IMG/VR virus record: IMGVR_UViG_3300037883_000032
Location: 1 to 53,069 of that record
Source: a virus
Length of the DNA: 53,069 nucleotides
Reading direction: 5' to 3' (one strand)
The translations under genes were made by a program, and so were the position numbers. The notes under the pieces are model-generated. The model made no database searches and was not told the origin of the DNA. It saw only the letters and a program-made list of their open reading frames with translations. This document shows positions 9,037 through 29,223 of the stretch, piece after piece (position 1 is the first letter of the stretch; every line of letters begins with the position of its first letter).

Positions 9037-9704
9037 GACGCCAGCTCGGCTTCCCATGCTTCGCGGCCCTCGCGTGCCAGGTCCGCTCGTTGCCCGCTCG
9101 GGCTGGAGGCGTGGCGGTGCAGGAACGTGAACAGGCCGCTGTAACCGACCTCCCAGCCCGCCTTGCGTAGGCGGTGGCAGAAGATCGCGTCCTCGTAATA
9201 CAGCCGAGGCATGTTGCTCATCCCACCCACCTGCTCGTACGCCTCGCGGCGGATGAGCATGATCGAGCCGCTGACCTGCGCGACCACCTCGAACGGCGTG
9301 ATGTACTGGCCGATGTCGGCCTGGCCGTAGGAACGTCCGCCGGCGGGACTGCCCGCCTCGAGGATCCCGGCGTGCGCGATGAAGCCGCGCGGGTCGCGCT
9401 GGCGTGGTCCTAGCACGCCGAGGCGGGGATGCTCGTGGAATAGCTCGAGCAGCGGCCCGATTCCCTCCTCGGGGAACTCCACGTCAGCGTTGCACGCGAT
9501 CAGGATCGGGGTCTTCGCGAGGTCGAGGTCGCGCGCGAGCGCGGCGGCGTAGCCGATGTTCGTCGGCAGGTTCTCGACGTAGGTCGTGTGGACCGCCTTG
9601 AGCCATGTTGGTCGGCCGATGCTCTCCCGGCAGCGCGCGGCCAGCTCGGTGGTCTTGTAGCTCACGATCGCGACGGTCGCGGTGAGCGGCGTGTGCTCGT
9701 TCAC
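9033..9704 (-). CDS. Glycosyltransferase family 2 (rhamnosyltransferase-like)
   Basis: A 223-residue protein. The GT2 start is TATVAIVSYKTTELAARCRESI, followed by the NxGYAAALARDLDL block and ILIACNADVEFPEEGIGPLL with the metal-binding D-x-E. GVLGPRQRDPRGFIAHAGI and then SGSIMLIRREAYEQVGG and RLYYEDAIFCHRLRKAGW (the ED...R acceptor motif) are standard for rhamnosyl/glucosyl transferases. It is coupled by GTGA to the gene before it. Confidence 0.88.
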   Translation of the reverse strand: MNEHTPLTATVAIVSYKTTELAARCRESIGRPTWLKAVHTTYVENLPTNIGYAAALARDLDLAKTPILIACNADVEFPEEGIGPLLELFHEHPRLGVLGPRQRDPRGFIAHAGILEAGSPAGGRSYGQADIGQYITPFEVVAQVSGSIMLIRREAYEQVGGMSNMPRLYYEDAIFCHRLRKAGWEVGYSGLFTFLHRHASSPSGQRADLAREGREAWEAELAS

Positions 9705-10474
9705 AGCGCGTACCGGTCCCAGACGTGGCGGGCGTACGTGCCCGGCAGCCAGCCAGCGGTGTAGCCGGCGAGCTTCAGGTTGATCCCGAAGCCGATGTCC
9801 TCCCCCGACTGGTGCCAGCGGTAGCGGACCTTCGAGAACACATAGCGTGGCATAAGGATCGCGCCCATCGGGATGTCGATCGGTTGGACGCCGCCGGCTT
9901 CGCGGGTCGCCTCATCGACTTCAGCGCGTTTCCATGCCCACGTGCCGAGGTCTTGCGGGCGGCCCGCTTCGAGCGCCTCGCGGGGGTGGTGACGCTCGTT
10001 GCCGAGGATCCCGGCGTTGCACGTCCATGTGGCCGTTGGGTGAAAGCTGAGGCGCGGCGCGACCACGTCGACGTTCTCAGCGTCGCAGCCCGGCGGCAGC
10101 GTTGCGATAGCCGCCAGGAGCCGCTCGATCGTGCGGGCGTCCTCGAGCATGATGTCGGTGTCGAGCGACAGCAGGTGTGTCGCGTCGGTGCAGACGGTCG
10201 CCTCGGCGAGCATCAGGTTCCGCAGTCGCGTGAGGGTGTGGAACCGCTCGTTGTCCTGGCGGTCATGCGGTGGCGTGCTCTCGTGGTGGCGGATCGTCGG
10301 GATCTCCCAGTCCTGCGCACAGTCACGGATCGCCTTCCATGTGTCGTCGCCGCGCTGGCCACCGTGGATCAGCAGCACCTGGTCGGGCTTGACGGTCTGC
10401 TGCGCCAGGTACCGGTACCAGTGGGGGAGCGCCCAGTCTCTATCAGCCACCGGCGCCGCTACGACGAGCTTCAT
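9701..10474 (-). CDS. Glycosyltransferase, GT-A type
   Basis: A 257-residue protein: MKLVVAAPVADRDWALPHWY, then KPDQVLLIHGG, ATHLLSLDTDIMLEDARTIERL (DxD site) and a C-terminal GEDIGFGINLKLAGYTAGWLPGTYARHVWD. It belongs to the GT2-like enzymes found in actinophage genomes. The ATG overlaps the stop of an HNH gene (ATGA). The first thirteen residues are repeated almost exactly at the start of that HNH protein, although seven of the thirteen codons differ. The glycosyltransferase itself looks complete. Confidence 0.82.
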   Translation of the reverse strand: MKLVVAAPVADRDWALPHWYRYLAQQTVKPDQVLLIHGGQRGDDTWKAIRDCAQDWEIPTIRHHESTPPHDRQDNERFHTLTRLRNLMLAEATVCTDATHLLSLDTDIMLEDARTIERLLAAIATLPPGCDAENVDVVAPRLSFHPTATWTCNAGILGNERHHPREALEAGRPQDLGTWAWKRAEVDEATREAGGVQPIDIPMGAILMPRYVFSKVRYRWHQSGEDIGFGINLKLAGYTAGWLPGTYARHVWDRYAL

Positions 10475-10842
10475 GCCGCCGCCCGTTCGCGCTGCTTCGC
10501 CTCGCGCTTACACGTGCGGCAGTCGCGTCCTATAACGCGCCCGTCGCGGTAGACCAAACGCGTGTTCGCCTCGTCATAAGGATGCCCACGCTTGCAGTGA
10601 GTGCGCCCACGATTCCAGCGCGGCGGCTCGACGCCATCGAAGTCCGCGTGGCAGCGTTTGCACAACTCCAACCAGTCCTCACGCTTGCGGGTGTAGACGT
10701 GGTCGATGCTGGCCCACTCCGTCCGGCCGACGTGGCCGCACCGCTCGCAGCGCCCGCGGCGCTCGAAGTGCCGCTGGACCCACCGGTGGAGCGTGCTATA
10801 GCCGTCGCGGTCGGCGACGGGCGCGGCGACGACGAGCTTCAC
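10471..10842 (-). CDS. HNH homing-type endonuclease with borrowed N-terminus
   Basis: A 123-residue protein. It starts with GTG coding VKLVVAAPVADRD, which copies the N-terminus of the downstream glycosyltransferase, then GYSTLHRWVQRHFE and the HNH core: CERCGHVG...SIDHVY...DWLELCKRCHADFDG. A second zinc module follows (CKRGHPYDEANT and CRTCKREAKQ), usual in phage free-standing HNH enzymes. Overlapping stops and starts on both sides keep the operon intact. The shared N-terminus suggests insertion at the glycosyltransferase start, with the target duplicated and recoded. A relative with the same core and second module sits near 27.3 kb. Confidence 0.88.
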   Translation of the reverse strand: MKLVVAAPVADRDGYSTLHRWVQRHFERRGRCERCGHVGRTEWASIDHVYTRKREDWLELCKRCHADFDGVEPPRWNRGRTHCKRGHPYDEANTRLVYRDGRVIGRDCRTCKREAKQRERAAA

Positions 10843-11330
10843 TTGCCCTTCTTCGCGCGCCGCGCGTTTTCGCGGCGCACCTTCCGGGGTGGCTCGGGGG
10901 CCGCCATGAGCGGGGTCTCGCCGTCCGGCCCGTAGAGGCCGGTGTCGCTCGCGGCGTGCTGCTCGGCGCTGGTGGCGACCTGCTCGAAGATCTCGGCGAG
11001 GGCCTTCATCTTGCGCAGGAACAGGTCCTCGAGGGTGATGAGGCCTGTGTCGACGAGGATGTTGGAGATCGCGTTGACGAGGGCGTTGCGTTCGGCGTCC
11101 TCCGGCACGCCGTATTCGCGGCCTGGTTTGCTGATCTCTTGCAGTCGCTCCAGCGAGGCCTTGATGCGATCCTGGCAGGCCTGCGCGATCGCCCGCTGGC
11201 CGGGTGTCATCGTGACGCCCTGCTCCTCCTCGCCCTCCTCGCCCTTCTGCGCGTCCGCCTCCGGCTCGGCCTGTGGCTCGGCCTGCTGGTCGGCTTCGTC
11301 GCGCTCTCGCTCGTCTGTCAAGTCTGCCAT
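10839..11330 (-). CDS. Hypothetical acidic, helical protein
   Basis: 163 residues. The first 38 are almost all Glu, Asp, Gln and Ala (disordered acidic tail). A helical domain follows: PGQRAIAQACQDRIKASLERL, NALVNAISNILVDTGLITLEDLFLRKMKALAEIFEQVA. The C-terminus is basic (PRKVRRENARRAKKGK). No family was recognised. An acidic head, helical middle and basic tail could suit a scaffold-like or DNA-mimic role, but this is conjecture. An operator-type palindrome and a GC-rich hairpin lie in the 198 bases upstream. Confidence 0.6.
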   Translation of the reverse strand: MADLTDERERDEADQQAEPQAEPEADAQKGEEGEEEQGVTMTPGQRAIAQACQDRIKASLERLQEISKPGREYGVPEDAERNALVNAISNILVDTGLITLEDLFLRKMKALAEIFEQVATSAEQHAASDTGLYGPDGETPLMAAPEPPRKVRRENARRAKKGK

Positions 11331-24250: not shown

Positions 24251-26452
24251 TCACCCGTCCCCGTTGCGGCCGTGAGGGTGAATGGCACGCGCGAGCCTGC
24301 GGATATTGACCCTGCTCTCGGCACGGTACTGCTCGCCCGCGTCCACATACTCGGGGTCATCGGGCCTGCGGCGTGGGATGCGAGCGCCGGCGCGCGCGGC
24401 CTCGCGGATCGCGACCTGCACGATCTCGACGAGCGTCGGGTCGGCCTCGCGCATCTGCCCGCCGCCGCCGGAGTCCCGGCGAATGTTCGCCTTGCCGGCC
24501 TGCGTCATGACGTTCTCGTCGCCCGGGATGCCCGAGCGGCCGGGTGCGCGTGGGCCTGGCGGCGTACCCGGTGCACCACCGCCCGCTTCCGCGCCTGGGG
24601 GTGCGGCTTCGCCCGGACCGGGCATCAGCAGGCCTGGCGGCTGGTCCTCGCTCGAGCCGGCCTTCGTCGGGTCGAGCTTCGGCGACTGGCGGTACTGGGC
24701 GTTCACCATCGGCCGGCGGATCGTGCCGTCGCCCTGCTTCGGCTTCGTTTTCTCGATCGGTTTGCCGTCCGGGCCGAGAACCTGTGGGCCGCTGTCGTCC
24801 GGCTCGTCCTCCTGGGCGTTGGTGAACTCCTCCGCGATTTTCTTCTGCTCGTCGTCCCAGTCGAACGTCTCGATGTCGAGCTGGCGGGCGCCCATCGCGG
24901 CGGCCGTGTCCTTCGAGATCCAGTCCATGCTCTCGGCGAACGCGATGTCCTTCAAGGCGGCGGAGCGTTCCTCGACGGCGATCGCGGGGAAGATGAACTC
25001 GATCTCGGCGTCCTCGCCAGTGAGGTTCGCGGCGGCGAACACGCGGCGCGCCATGTCCTGAAGGATGCGCTGCGAGAACCGCTGGCGGCGCTCGAAGCGC
25101 TTCTGGCCCGGCTCGGTCGCGACGAGCGCGCCGGCGCGCGCGGTGCTGCCGCCGTGCGCGGCGGTCCACAGCCACTGGCGGCTCACACCGGTGCCGAGGC
25201 AGCACATCTCGACCAGCTCGTCGACGCTGGTGTCGCTCGTGGCCGTCGAGCTGGTGAATTGGAATGCGTCCAGCTCCACCTGGTCGTTGTGCCCGATAAT
25301 CGAGCCAGCTTCCGGGGTCTTGCCTTGCGGGAACAGCTCGTTGCGGACGGTCGCTACGTCGCCGGCGTGACCTTTGACCATCAGGTTGAACACCATCCGG
25401 GCTTCCATGTCGGACCGGATGACCTTGCTCGTCAGGAGGTCTTGGAGGCGCTTGAGGTAGCCCAGGCTGGGGAACAGGTCTGAGCGTCCGCGGACCTCCT
25501 GGCTGCGCACGTTGAGGCGGTAGTGGTCGACCTCCTCCGGCGGGATCTGCCGGATCGTGTACCGCGTGACCGCGCCCGGGTCGGTCGGGCCGGTCGGCGC
25601 CTGGTCGCCGGCGGGCGGCGCGAATAGCTGCGAGCGCTCCTGCTCCTGCTGGTGGTAGAAGTAGACGGTCTCGCGGTCCTCCTGGTCGGTCACGATCTCG
25701 TAGATCCCGGCCGGGTCGAGCGACCGGACGACGAGCGGGCAGCCGTACTCGGGGTCGGGCGGCACGTCGAAGTAGCGCAGGAACAGCTCGCCGTAGCTGA
25801 ACGCGTCGCCGAGGATTTCCTCGAGGCGCTCGTCCATCTTGTTGCGTTTCGCGAACGCGTCCCACACCTTCTGGCCCGCCTCGGTTTTCGCGACGGCTTG
25901 CACGCCCCGGCCGATCACGAACTCCGTGGCGATTTCGATCGCGCGGTGAGCGATCGGGTTGTGGTGGAACGCCTCGAACGCCTTCGCGTTCTGCGCGAAG
26001 TAGTCAGCCCAGTAGAGCTGCCGCGTCGCGGGGCCGGGGATCAACGGAATGTAGGGGCTGGTGACACCACCGCCGAACGGGAGGGTGGTATTGACGCCGT
26101 AGCTCCACCAGTCGAGCGGTTCGGCCTCGCGGAACTTGACCTTGTGCAGCTCGCCGTAGTGCAAGCCCGCGAGCTTCGGCTCAGCCTCGCGCAGGCGCCT
26201 CACGGTCGCCTGGATCGCGCGGCGGTCGTCGTAGCGCTTGATGCGATGCTCCACGAGACGACCCTCACGGAAGCGGCCCTCCCAGAAGCGGCCGGAGAGC
26301 TGCCAGTCGCCCGTCGGCGCAGCGTCCGGGCAGGGCGGCAGTTCCTTCGCGATGTCGTACTGGTACTGGTCCGCCGGTGGCCTGACGAGGAAAGCGTGCG
26401 CGCGGCCGGGGTCGCGGTCGCGGCGCGGCTGGCTCGGGCTTCTACCTGGCAT
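24251..26452 (-). CDS. Portal protein with long N-terminal extension
   Basis: 733 residues. The portal forms the dodecameric ring for DNA entry. Core signs are AKAFEAFHHNPIAHRAIEIA (stem helix region), DAFSYGELFLRYFDVPPDP, SLDPAGIYEIVTDQEDRETV, then EVDHYRLNVRSQEVRGRSDL and LVEMCCLGTGVSRQWLWTAAHG. The C-terminus is a long Pro/Gly-rich tail followed by PTLVEIVQVAIREAARAGAR. The N-terminal 90 residues (KELPPCPDAAPTGDWQLSGR) are extra compared with usual portals. The ATG lies eleven bases after the late 12-mer and overlaps the end of the zinc-finger gene. Confidence 0.88.
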   Translation of the reverse strand: MPGRSPSQPRRDRDPGRAHAFLVRPPADQYQYDIAKELPPCPDAAPTGDWQLSGRFWEGRFREGRLVEHRIKRYDDRRAIQATVRRLREAEPKLAGLHYGELHKVKFREAEPLDWWSYGVNTTLPFGGGVTSPYIPLIPGPATRQLYWADYFAQNAKAFEAFHHNPIAHRAIEIATEFVIGRGVQAVAKTEAGQKVWDAFAKRNKMDERLEEILGDAFSYGELFLRYFDVPPDPEYGCPLVVRSLDPAGIYEIVTDQEDRETVYFYHQQEQERSQLFAPPAGDQAPTGPTDPGAVTRYTIRQIPPEEVDHYRLNVRSQEVRGRSDLFPSLGYLKRLQDLLTSKVIRSDMEARMVFNLMVKGHAGDVATVRNELFPQGKTPEAGSIIGHNDQVELDAFQFTSSTATSDTSVDELVEMCCLGTGVSRQWLWTAAHGGSTARAGALVATEPGQKRFERRQRFSQRILQDMARRVFAAANLTGEDAEIEFIFPAIAVEERSAALKDIAFAESMDWISKDTAAAMGARQLDIETFDWDDEQKKIAEEFTNAQEDEPDDSGPQVLGPDGKPIEKTKPKQGDGTIRRPMVNAQYRQSPKLDPTKAGSSEDQPPGLLMPGPGEAAPPGAEAGGGAPGTPPGPRAPGRSGIPGDENVMTQAGKANIRRDSGGGGQMREADPTLVEIVQVAIREAARAGARIPRRRPDDPEYVDAGEQYRAESRVNIRRLARAIHPHGRNGDG

Positions 26453-27164
26453 CGACGGGCTGCATCGTAGACCCCCCCTCGGCAGGTAGCCCCAGCAGGC
26501 GCTCCAGGCGGTCGAAGACGTGCGGCGGGCACGCCGGGTCGCTCTGCACCCGCTGCCATAGCAGGATCAGGTAGTCGCGGCCCAGCTCGGGCAGCCGGCC
26601 GCCCATGCGCTGCTCGAGCGCGTCGATCTCCGCGATTGCCTGCTGCGTGTCGGGTGACGGCTCCGGGACGCGGTGCGCGCTGCGCCGCTTCTGTTTGCGT
26701 AGGGCCTCCGCGCGGCACTCCGGGCTGTGGTAGCTCGAGCGGGAATGCTCGGGCACGAACTCCTCCTCGCACCCCTCGAGCGCGCATTCGCGGGTGACGG
26801 GCTTGCCGCCGCGTGCCGCTTCCTCGCGCTCCTTCCGCTTGCGGCGCTTGCGCTTATCGGTGATGCGCCGCTGCCCGCGCACGGCCTCGTCGCGACACTC
26901 AGCGCTGTGGTACGCCTGCGCCGGCGCGGAGGGCAGGAAGATCTCGCTGCACCCGTCCCGCCGGCATTCCTTCTCGCGTGGCACCCACCCCGGGTATTGC
27001 GGCGTCTCCTCCTCCTGCGCGAGCTGCTTCTTCGTACGGCGGCGCTGCGGCTCCTGGTGGCGAACACGAACCGTGGTGTCATGGCCGGGACGCCTCGCGC
27101 TCGCTCCCAGCTCCGCGATCTTCCTATCCATCTCCGCGGCAGCCGCGCCCGTCGGTCGCGGCAT
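26442..27164 (-). CDS. Twin zinc-finger-like protein upstream of portal
   Basis: 240 residues from MPRPTGAAAAEMD (TGATG overlap with the HNH stop). Two similar modules: ECRRDGCSEIFLPSAPAQAYH...SAECRDEA and ECALEGCEEEFVPEHSRSSYH...SPECRAEA, each a possible Cys-Cys-His-Cys site, separated by a very basic stretch (KRKRRKRKEREEAA). The C-terminus is a helical domain (IAEIDALEQRMGGRLPELGRDYLILLW). It may bind nucleic acid, and its position before the portal suggests packaging or late control. No family recognised. Confidence 0.6.
   Translation of the reverse strand: MPRPTGAAAAEMDRKIAELGASARRPGHDTTVRVRHQEPQRRRTKKQLAQEEETPQYPGWVPREKECRRDGCSEIFLPSAPAQAYHSAECRDEAVRGQRRITDKRKRRKRKEREEAARGGKPVTRECALEGCEEEFVPEHSRSSYHSPECRAEALRKQKRRSAHRVPEPSPDTQQAIAEIDALEQRMGGRLPELGRDYLILLWQRVQSDPACPPHVFDRLERLLGLPAEGGSTMQPVDAR
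26464..26475 (-). promoter_or_regulatory. Repeated 12-mer GGGGTCTACGAT (copy 4), upstream of portal
   Basis: The identical 12-mer is embedded in the last codons of the upstream zinc-finger gene. The portal ATG follows eleven bases after TACGAT. A run of six G stands before TCTACGAT. Confidence 0.62.
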
Positions 27165-27505
27165 CAATGGCCCCTGCGTCGGCGCATCTTCTCGCGGCAG
27201 CAGCGGCGACATTCGCGGGCGCCGTCAGCACGCCAACGCGTATTCTCCTCGTCGTAAGGATGACCGGCCGGGCAGTGCGTCTTGCCGCGCTGGTGGCGCG
27301 CTGCGCCGTTCCCACCGTCAAAGGCCTGGTGGCATGGCCGGCACAGCTCGAACCAATCGTGCCGCCAACGACTGTAGCTGTGACCCACGCTCGCGTATTC
27401 CGTCGGGCGGTCGCCGTGCGCGCAGAACTCACAGCGACCCGTGCGTGGAAAGTCCGCGTTCAGCCGTTTGTGAAGCCTGCTGACGCTCGGCACGGATGGC
27501 GACAA
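27164..27505 (-). CDS. HNH endonuclease (homing type), second copy
   Basis: 113 residues. Core: LHKRLNADFPRTGRCEFCAH, then VGHSYSRWRHDWFELCRPCHQAFDG. The second module is CPAGHPYDEENTRW and CRRCCREKMRRRR. It is the same type as the HNH gene near 10.6 kb. The canonical 'DH' is replaced by GH (SVGHSY), and a TTG or an internal GTG must serve as start, so activity is uncertain. It sits between the GroES/terminator region and head genes. Overlaps suggest insertion. Confidence 0.78.
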   Translation of the reverse strand: MSPSVPSVSRLHKRLNADFPRTGRCEFCAHGDRPTEYASVGHSYSRWRHDWFELCRPCHQAFDGGNGAARHQRGKTHCPAGHPYDEENTRWRADGARECRRCCREKMRRRRGH

Positions 27506-27572
27506 TAGTCAGATGACCGGCGGAAACGGTAAGCTGCGCGGGCTGCGTGAAGTCGAACGCGGGGACCTGCAT
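27429..27572 (-). CDS. Small ORF overlapping the HNH start (possible interrupted gene)
   Basis: 47 residues from MQVPAFDFTQPAQLTVSAGHL. The opening looks like a real protein start, but the frame becomes low-quality where it overlaps the HNH gene, and no strong ribosome site precedes the ATG. A good AAAGGAGG lies about 60 bases upstream without a start codon at the right distance. It may be the 5' remnant of a gene broken by the HNH insertion. Confidence 0.3.
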   Translation of the reverse strand: MQVPAFDFTQPAQLTVSAGHLTIVAIRAERQQASQTAERGLSTHGSL

Positions 27573-27638
27573 GGTCTGCCCACCGCCCTGTGCGCGAGAG
27601 CGACCTTCGGGAAGGGCCTTACGGTGGGACCTCCTTTC

Positions 27639-27686
27639 GCACATACGCCCCGGCGCCAGAAGCACAACACCGGGGCGTTTGTGTGC
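27639..27686 (-). terminator. Terminator-like hairpin downstream of groES
   Basis: Long inverted repeat GCACA-x-ACGCCCCGG and CCGGGGCGT-x-TGTGC with a 15-18-base loop, in the gap after the GroES gene. It can fold on both strands. A purine-rich AAAGGAGG follows on the minus strand instead of a U tract. Confidence 0.5.
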
Positions 27687-27692
27687 TCGAGG

Positions 27693-28145
27693 TCAGTGAA
27701 CCTGCGCGGCCTCCCGGCCAGGCGCCGGCTCAACCGCTGACTCGTCCGGCTCCTCCTCGTGTGACGCGTCGTCGTGCGTCTCGACGCGCTGGAGGTGAGA
27801 GACGCTGCCGCCCTCCTCGCCGTCGCCTTCGACGACCCTGCCGAAGATGTCAGCCTCGCGCAGCAGGACGATCTCGACCAGGTCGACCTTTAGCTCGGTC
27901 CCGCCGTATTTGCTGTATAGGACCTCGTCGCCGACCTCGAGCGGCTGGTAGCCGTGGGTGATCTTGAGACGCTCGCGTTCCTGCGCGGCCTCGACACCGA
28001 CCATCGGTCCCATCGCGATGATCCTGCCGCGGTGCGGCTTCTCGCGGGCCTGCTCGGGCAGGATGATCCCGGACTTCGTGACCAGCTCGTCGCTGATCGG
28101 CTCGACGACTACGCGGTCGCCCATCGGTTCTAGCGTGGCGCTCAT
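27693..28145 (-). CDS. groES: Co-chaperonin GroES (Cpn10)
   Basis: 150 residues. Residues 5-95 follow Cpn10: EPMGDRVVVEPISDELVTKS, GIILPEQAREKPHRGRIIAMG (mobile loop region), LEVGDEVLYSKYGGTELKVD and LVEIVLLREADIFGRV. The C-terminal 50 residues are an acidic extension absent from bacterial GroES. With GroEL of the host it would fold capsid or other phage proteins, as T4 gp31 does for gp23. Ribosome site GGGGAGG. It lies between terminase and portal genes. Confidence 0.9.
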   Translation of the reverse strand: MSATLEPMGDRVVVEPISDELVTKSGIILPEQAREKPHRGRIIAMGPMVGVEAAQERERLKITHGYQPLEVGDEVLYSKYGGTELKVDLVEIVLLREADIFGRVVEGDGEEGGSVSHLQRVETHDDASHEEEPDESAVEPAPGREAAQVH

Positions 28146-29127: not shown

Positions 29128-29223
29128 TGCGCACGACGGGAATCGAACCCGCGACCGCCGGCTTGAAAGACCGGAACTCTTTGCTCACCCGAGAGTGAAC
29201 GTTGACCACTGAGCTACGTGCGC
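29128..29223 (-). tRNA. tRNA-Glu (anticodon UUC) with extended D-arm
   Basis: Acceptor stem GCGCACG/CGTGCGC, anticodon stem CCGGT/GCCGG with loop CTTTCAA giving UUC, five-base variable loop, T arm GCGGG-TTCGATT-CCCGT, discriminator A. No encoded CCA. The D-arm is about 23 bases longer than normal: after TAGCTCAGTGGTC comes an insert (AACGTTCAC...GTGAGCAA) before AGAGT. Removing it leaves an ordinary D arm (GCTC...GAGT). The insert can fold (TTCAC/GTGAG). It could be a processed insertion, a defect, or an unusual tRNA. It may support phage codon use. Confidence 0.75.

What the first reader, a model, noticed from the sequence alone, without database searches (positions are those of the whole stretch)
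9701..10842. HNH gene starts with a recoded copy of its neighbour's N-terminus
VKLVVAAPVADRD of the HNH enzyme repeats residues 1-13 of the downstream glycosyltransferase, yet seven of thirteen codons differ. Simple recent duplication would keep codons. One reading: the HNH inserted at the glycosyltransferase start, and codon changes in the second copy removed the cleavage site, keeping the host gene immune. It is a possible snapshot of homing with self-protection.
Basis: partly seen in the sequence, partly recalled or inferred. Interest (0 to 1): 0.65.

Follow-up and report, generated by a model that had tools for sequence, protein, structure and literature searches.

The report
Phage nuclease that captures gene starts
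A small selfish DNA-cutting gene in this phage begins with the original start of the gene next to it and is followed by a differently spelled copy of that start, so the neighbouring gene stays whole; several other phages show the same arrangement, most clearly one whose uninvaded relatives are known.

Summary
The HNH gene (10842..10471, minus) opens with 13 codons encoding VKLVVAAPVADRD. Residues 2-13 are identical to those of the downstream glycosyltransferase (GT, 10474..9701), yet 7 of the 12 internal codons (8 nt) differ, all synonymously. Neutral drift after a simple duplication would do this about once in 100,000. Removing 10803..10436 (368 bp) leaves an intact GT that starts on the upstream gene's stop codon.

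The key evidence is an unrelated case. In locus L071 an HNH gene sits before a head-tail adaptor gene. Its first 12 codons match the adaptor start of an HNH-less relative at 34 of 36 nt; the downstream adaptor start matches at 24 of 36 and carries changes shared by both HNH-bearing phages. There the leader is the native start and the downstream start is the altered one. L031 (Rad52-like gene) is a third clear case; L057 and L121 are weak. Most HNH genes examined lack a leader.

Best reading: a splice-free homing cassette that takes over its host gene's start and hands back a respelled one. Immunity to self-cleavage is plausible but untested; in the window itself, which copy changed is unresolved. 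Closest known kind: fungal mitochondrial mobile ORFs that duplicate host-gene C-termini.

The parts
10804..10842 (-). Leader: first 13 codons of the HNH ORF, read as the original 5' end of the GT gene
   Evidence: Residues 2-13 identical to GT, 8 synonymous nt differences; AlphaFold pLDDT below 50 for residues 1-12; absent from the HNH of relative G001
10471..10842 (-). HNH endonuclease ORF, 123 aa
   Evidence: PHROG 1492 (5e-7) and 826 (1e-4), HNH endonuclease; shared Cys/His pattern in four homologues
10436..10803 (-). Inferred inserted segment (368 bp): HNH body, stop codon, and the respelled copy of GT codons 1-13
   Evidence: Sequence: removing it joins leader codon 13 to GT codon 14 (TGG) in frame and leaves an intact GT
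10436..10474 (-). Second (downstream) copy of GT codons 1-13, with different codons
   Evidence: shares AGA, GTG and GCG codons with the GT of relative G001
9701..10474 (-). Host gene: glycosyltransferase-like protein, 257 aa
   Evidence: Weak Anp1 match (window 0.05; G001 orthologue 5.8e-6); lies in a glycosyltransferase/epimerase cluster; start overlaps the HNH stop (ATGA)
10839..11330 (-). Upstream gene of unknown function; its stop overlaps the leader start (GTGA)
   Evidence: Homologue in the same place in G001 (36% identity)
27164..27505 (-). Second HNH of the same family, without a leader, next to a gene of unknown function upstream of the portal gene; site empty in G001

Best explanation
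This is a small homing-endonuclease cassette that inserted inside the 5' coding end of a phage gene, here between codons 13 and 14 of a glycosyltransferase gene. The native first 13 codons, with their start codon and translation signals, now begin the HNH protein. After its own stop codon the cassette carries another version of the same 13 codons, fused in frame to the rest of the host gene. The HNH stop and the restored start overlap, so ribosomes can pass from one gene to the next and the host protein is still made without splicing. Different spelling of the restored start probably keeps the cassette's own nuclease from cutting the filled site and limits loss by recombination between the two copies. 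Shown: the architecture, the synonymous divergence, a native leader in the L071 case, and recurrence in other host genes. Inferred: homing activity, translational coupling, and immunity.
For: Window: 12/12 residues with 8 synonymous changes, sharp boundaries at the start codon and codon 13, both junctions overlapping. L071 and L107/L082: the L071 HNH leader MAAPPVEVPCEP equals the adaptor start of HNH-less L101 (34/36 nt); other HNH-less starts are MAAPPVQVPCEPW (L103) and MAAPPTTVPCEPW (L104-L106); both HNH-bearing phages have MAAPPEQVPCSPW downstream. Five sites in codons 1-12 separate both HNH+ downstream copies from L101 and L103, none does in codons 13-24, and the L071 leader carries the native base at all five. 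Their HNH bodies are 91% identical in protein with 63% third-position identity, so the nuclease is under selection. The L071/L107 HNH 3' end carries AGGAGGTCGCCTGATG, a likely ribosome-binding site for the restored gene. L031: HNH MTEEVSLAEKLAW before a Rad52-like gene MSEKDYTLAEKLEW. Survey of 86 HNH cases against shuffled pairings. Mobility of the family: second HNH in the window, site empty in G001.
Against: No close HNH-less relative of the window's GT was found, so the window's own empty site is inferred. G001 has the HNH at the same place without the leader. Most HNH genes examined lack a leader: about 80 of 86 viral-contig cases, about 18 sampled HNH genes in cultured phages and about 30 HNH_3 loci in bacterial genomes. 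L057 and L121 have leaders of only 8 and 6 codons, and in L057 the HNH profile already starts at residue 2. No cleavage data exist. The site-pattern test in L071 is small (5 sites, P = 0.015).
Confidence: 0.62

Rival explanations
1. Two-allele recombination without an immunity role: HNH plus an adjoining gene start arrived from a divergent phage, and the resident gene's first codons were left behind and fused by chance to the HNH. Codon differences are ordinary divergence between alleles.
For: Explains sharp left boundaries, synonymous-only differences and shared changes in the two HNH+ adaptors. Two HNH-less adaptor alleles themselves keep only 4 of 10 synonymous codons in codons 1-12.
Against: Does not predict an E-to-S replacement at a residue invariant in the five closest HNH-less adaptors, nor a dip in identity confined to codons 1-12 while codons 13-24 stay at 78-86%. 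In-frame fusions in separate host genes suggest selection.
Confidence: 0.25
2. Local duplication of the GT start upstream of an already resident HNH, followed by divergence.
For: G001 has the HNH in the same place without a leader; leader and GT agree in all 12 residues although G001's GT agrees in only 7.
Against: All 8 changes being synonymous is very unlikely if the leader drifts freely (P about 1e-5). The copy begins exactly at the start codon and exactly on the upstream stop. The L071 leader matches an HNH-less phage.
Confidence: 0.1
3. The leader is a functional part of the HNH protein or a translation-initiation enhancer kept for that purpose.
For: Amino-acid sequence is fully conserved between the two copies.
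Against: G001's HNH, window HNH-2 and L096 lack it; the model gives residues 1-12 pLDDT below 50; in L071 the HNH profile starts at residue 12.
Confidence: 0.03

Closest known systems
Fungal mitochondrial mobile ORF gene hybrids (Allomyces atp6; Glomus atp6, atp9, cox2, nad3; PMC3630166)
   Same: An endonuclease ORF inserted in a gene together with a second version of a host-gene end. The native end is nearly identical to relatives in DNA; the inserted end is diverged in DNA but similar in protein.
   Different: There the C-terminal end is duplicated and the native end is displaced and often silent, with LAGLIDADG or GIY-YIG enzymes. Here it is the N-terminal end, in phages, with HNH enzymes, and the displaced native end is used as the start of the nuclease.
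Free-standing phage HNH homing endonucleases (PHROG 826/1492; T4 Mob, Skunavirus and actinophage HNH genes)
   Same: Same protein families, same habit of sitting next to essential or conserved genes with overlapping start and stop.
   Different: No captured host-gene start is described for them in the papers searched, and none was seen clearly in the cultured phages sampled.
Group I introns and inteins with HNH endonucleases
   Same: Element inside a coding sequence that leaves the host product intact.
   Different: No RNA or protein splicing is needed; the host gene is restored by a second start. No Rfam intron match in the window.
Engineered home-and-rescue gene drives (for example PMC7968924, seen)
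   Same: Nuclease placed in a target gene together with a recoded segment that restores it.
   Different: Synthetic and CRISPR-based; resemblance in principle only.

Membership tests
HNH homing endonuclease | HNH / zinc-binding sequence motifs | tested here: met
   PHROG 1492 5.3e-7 and 826 1e-4; conserved Cys/His pattern. Pfam HNH far below its cut-off
HNH homing endonuclease | HNH fold | tested here: inconclusive
   Best nuclease match 4h9d HNH nickase, Foldseek probability 0.77 but E 0.48
HNH homing endonuclease | Presence and absence at a site among relatives | tested here: met
   Family member at 27164-27505 absent from G001; L071-type HNH absent from L101, L103-L106. Not shown for the window GT site in a close relative
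HNH homing endonuclease | Site-specific cleavage of the uninvaded allele | not testable with these tools
   Needs biochemistry
Mobile-ORF gene hybrid (fungal mitochondria) | Second version of one end of the host gene carried next to the endonuclease ORF | tested here: met
   12-13 codons in window and L071
Mobile-ORF gene hybrid (fungal mitochondria) | Native end close to relatives, carried end diverged in DNA but similar in protein | tested here: met
   L071: 34/36 against 24/36 nt to L101; carried end 9/12 residues. In the window, residues 12/12 but polarity unresolved
Mobile-ORF gene hybrid (fungal mitochondria) | Duplicated end is the carboxy-terminal end | tested here: not met
   It is the amino-terminal end
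Intron or intein element | Splicing element around the endonuclease | tested here: not met
   HNH ORF has its own stop; complete GT ORF downstream; no Rfam intron in the window

The most novel reading that the evidence does not exclude
Phages carry a class of splice-free, self-restoring homing cassettes of about 370-500 bp. Each takes the start of its host gene as its own start and returns a respelled start that its nuclease cannot cut: a natural version of a home-and-rescue drive.
Probability: 0.4. Interest if true: 0.78.

Novelty: new variant of a known kind. Interest (0 to 1): 0.62.

Why it matters
It would show how an endonuclease gene without intron or intein can invade the coding sequence of an important phage gene at little cost: it borrows the host start and gives back a working one. 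It gives a sequence signature (nuclease N-terminus equal to the next gene's N-terminus in other codons) that marks exact insertion points, and so candidate recognition sites, of otherwise uncharacterised HNH genes. The immunity idea becomes directly testable because native and altered target sequences lie side by side in one genome.

Tried and rejected
Chance match: rejected (about 6e-15). Recently recoded GT start shown by odd codons: not supported, because the GT start is in the 5th percentile of all 12-codon stretches but only about 6th lowest of 17 gene starts. A leader remnant in G001: weak, P = 0.03 against random G001 segments. A leader in window HNH-2 and in L096: absent. Leaders in cultured actinophages: none clear. 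Leaders in bacterial HNH_3 loci: none clear (one 40-point hit in L170 was not examined further). HNH-HNH gene pairs such as L008 and L020 score highly because both proteins are HNH enzymes; excluded. HNH-less relatives of the L031 and L057 host genes in the phage collection: none; two distant relatives of the L031 host gene in bacterial genomes were not used. Close GT relatives in phage and bacterial collections: none.

Full report
What is there. The window is a phage record of 53,069 bases. On the minus strand a 163-aa gene of unknown function (11330..10839), an HNH gene (10842..10471) and a glycosyltransferase-like gene (10474..9701) follow one another with four-base overlaps, GTGA and ATGA. 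The first 13 codons of the HNH gene encode VKLVVAAPVADRD; the GT begins MKLVVAAPVADRD. Eight nucleotides differ in codons 2-13 and none changes an amino acid. Random change of eight bases would be wholly synonymous with probability about 1e-5. So the two copies diverged while both were constrained as GT starts, or only the functional copy changed; the leader did not drift freely.

Boundaries. The similarity begins at the start codon and ends at codon 13, where the GT continues with TGG. Taking out 368 bp (10803..10436) joins leader codon 13 to GT codon 14 in frame and gives the same GT protein, started by a GTG that overlaps the upstream stop. This is read directly from the sequence. The order upstream gene-HNH-GT is shared with a colinear relative, G001 (locus L001, most genes 50-70% identical), but that HNH begins VDVNYSTAHRW without the leader. 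HNH-less GT relatives exist only at 36% and 34% identity (L002, L084). The leader is closer to them in DNA (28 of 36 for L084, 26 for L002) than the GT copy is (24 and 25), but the difference is too small to decide.

A second, unrelated case. A scan of HNH loci for N-termini equal to the next gene's N-terminus brought up L071. There an HNH_3-type gene starts MAAPPVEVPCEP and the following head-tail adaptor (PHROG 783) starts MAAPPEQVPCSPWTT. HNH-less relatives were then fetched. L101 starts MAAPPVEVPCEPWTT, L103 MAAPPVQVPCEPWTT, and L104-L106 MAAPPTTVPCEPWTT. The L071 leader is identical to L101 at 34 of 36 bases, while the downstream copy is identical at 24 of 36. A second HNH-bearing phage (L107/L082) has the leader MAASPAQVPCEP and the same altered downstream start MAAPPEQVPCSP. 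In codons 1-12, five sites separate both HNH-bearing downstream copies from L101 and L103, and none support other groupings; over the rest of the gene all groupings occur (25 against 37; P = 0.015). At all five sites the L071 leader has the native base. The 60 bases upstream of the L071 leader match those upstream of HNH-less L103 at 48 of 60. So the left part is the native gene start, and the piece after the HNH is an altered start that is shared among HNH-bearing phages.

More cases and how common it is. Among 86 distinct HNH cases with an abutting downstream ORF, the window, L071, L082 and L031 stand out; L057 (8 codons) and L121 (6 codons) are possible. L031 has MTEEVSLAEKLAW in the HNH and MSEKDYTLAEKLEW in a Rad52-like gene. 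In shuffled pairings about 1% reach a score of 35, some of them probably because both partners are HNH proteins. About 18 HNH genes sampled from cultured phages and about 30 HNH_3 loci in bacterial genomes gave no clear leader. The arrangement is therefore a minority form.

How it probably works. The HNH uses the host gene's own start and translation signals. Its end provides the new start for the host gene: in L071 and L107 with AGGAGGTCGCC just before TGATG, in the window by an ATGA overlap. Many HNH genes abut the next start in this way (26 of 86 with a four-base overlap). The HNH in the L071 group is under strong protein-level selection (91% protein identity, 63% third-position identity), as expected of an active enzyme. 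In the window's HNH the leader is predicted disordered and the rest folded. Different spelling of the restored start would protect it from the cassette's own nuclease and would reduce deletion between repeats. The E-to-S change two codons before the L071 junction, and four of eight changes in the last four codons before the window's junction, fit this, but nothing here tests cleavage.

Relation to known systems. The nearest description is of fungal mitochondrial mobile ORFs that carry a second C-terminus of their host gene, with the native end nearly identical to relatives and the carried end about 64-81% identical in DNA (PMC3630166). The phage form is its mirror image at the 5' end. Papers on phage homing endonucleases that were searched for the relevant terms do not report such duplicated host-gene starts (PMC2988022; PMC12724721; PMC10448857). 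PMC12724721 does state the general idea that recipients become resistant because the cleavage sequence is replaced by donor sequence. Absence from this library is not proof of novelty.

Noticed in passing
window 27565-27695 (-) and L088 8080-8240 (-): A conserved, structured-looking non-coding stretch (AAAGGAGG..ACCG..GGCCCTT..GCTCTCGC..CAGGGCGGT) lies upstream of the same gene of unknown function (27212 or 27163..26442 in the window) in both relatives; predicted hairpins with 7 two-sided compensatory pairs between the two sequences and no Rfam match.
   Followed up: partly
window 29128-29223 (-): Rfam reports a full-length tRNA of 96 nt (60.6 bits) that ARAGORN does not find; possibly a long variable arm or an insertion.
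   Followed up: no
L146, L148, L150, L156, L157: In several annotated actinophages an HNH gene sits directly before the single-stranded DNA-binding protein gene; a recurrent insertion neighbourhood.
   Followed up: no
L141 (Gordonia phage Smoothie) 2363-4385: An HNH gene lies between two genes both annotated as endolysin.
   Followed up: no
L084 3714-4313: A different HNH gene follows the GT in one HNH-less-start relative, where L002 has an epimerase-like gene.
   Followed up: no
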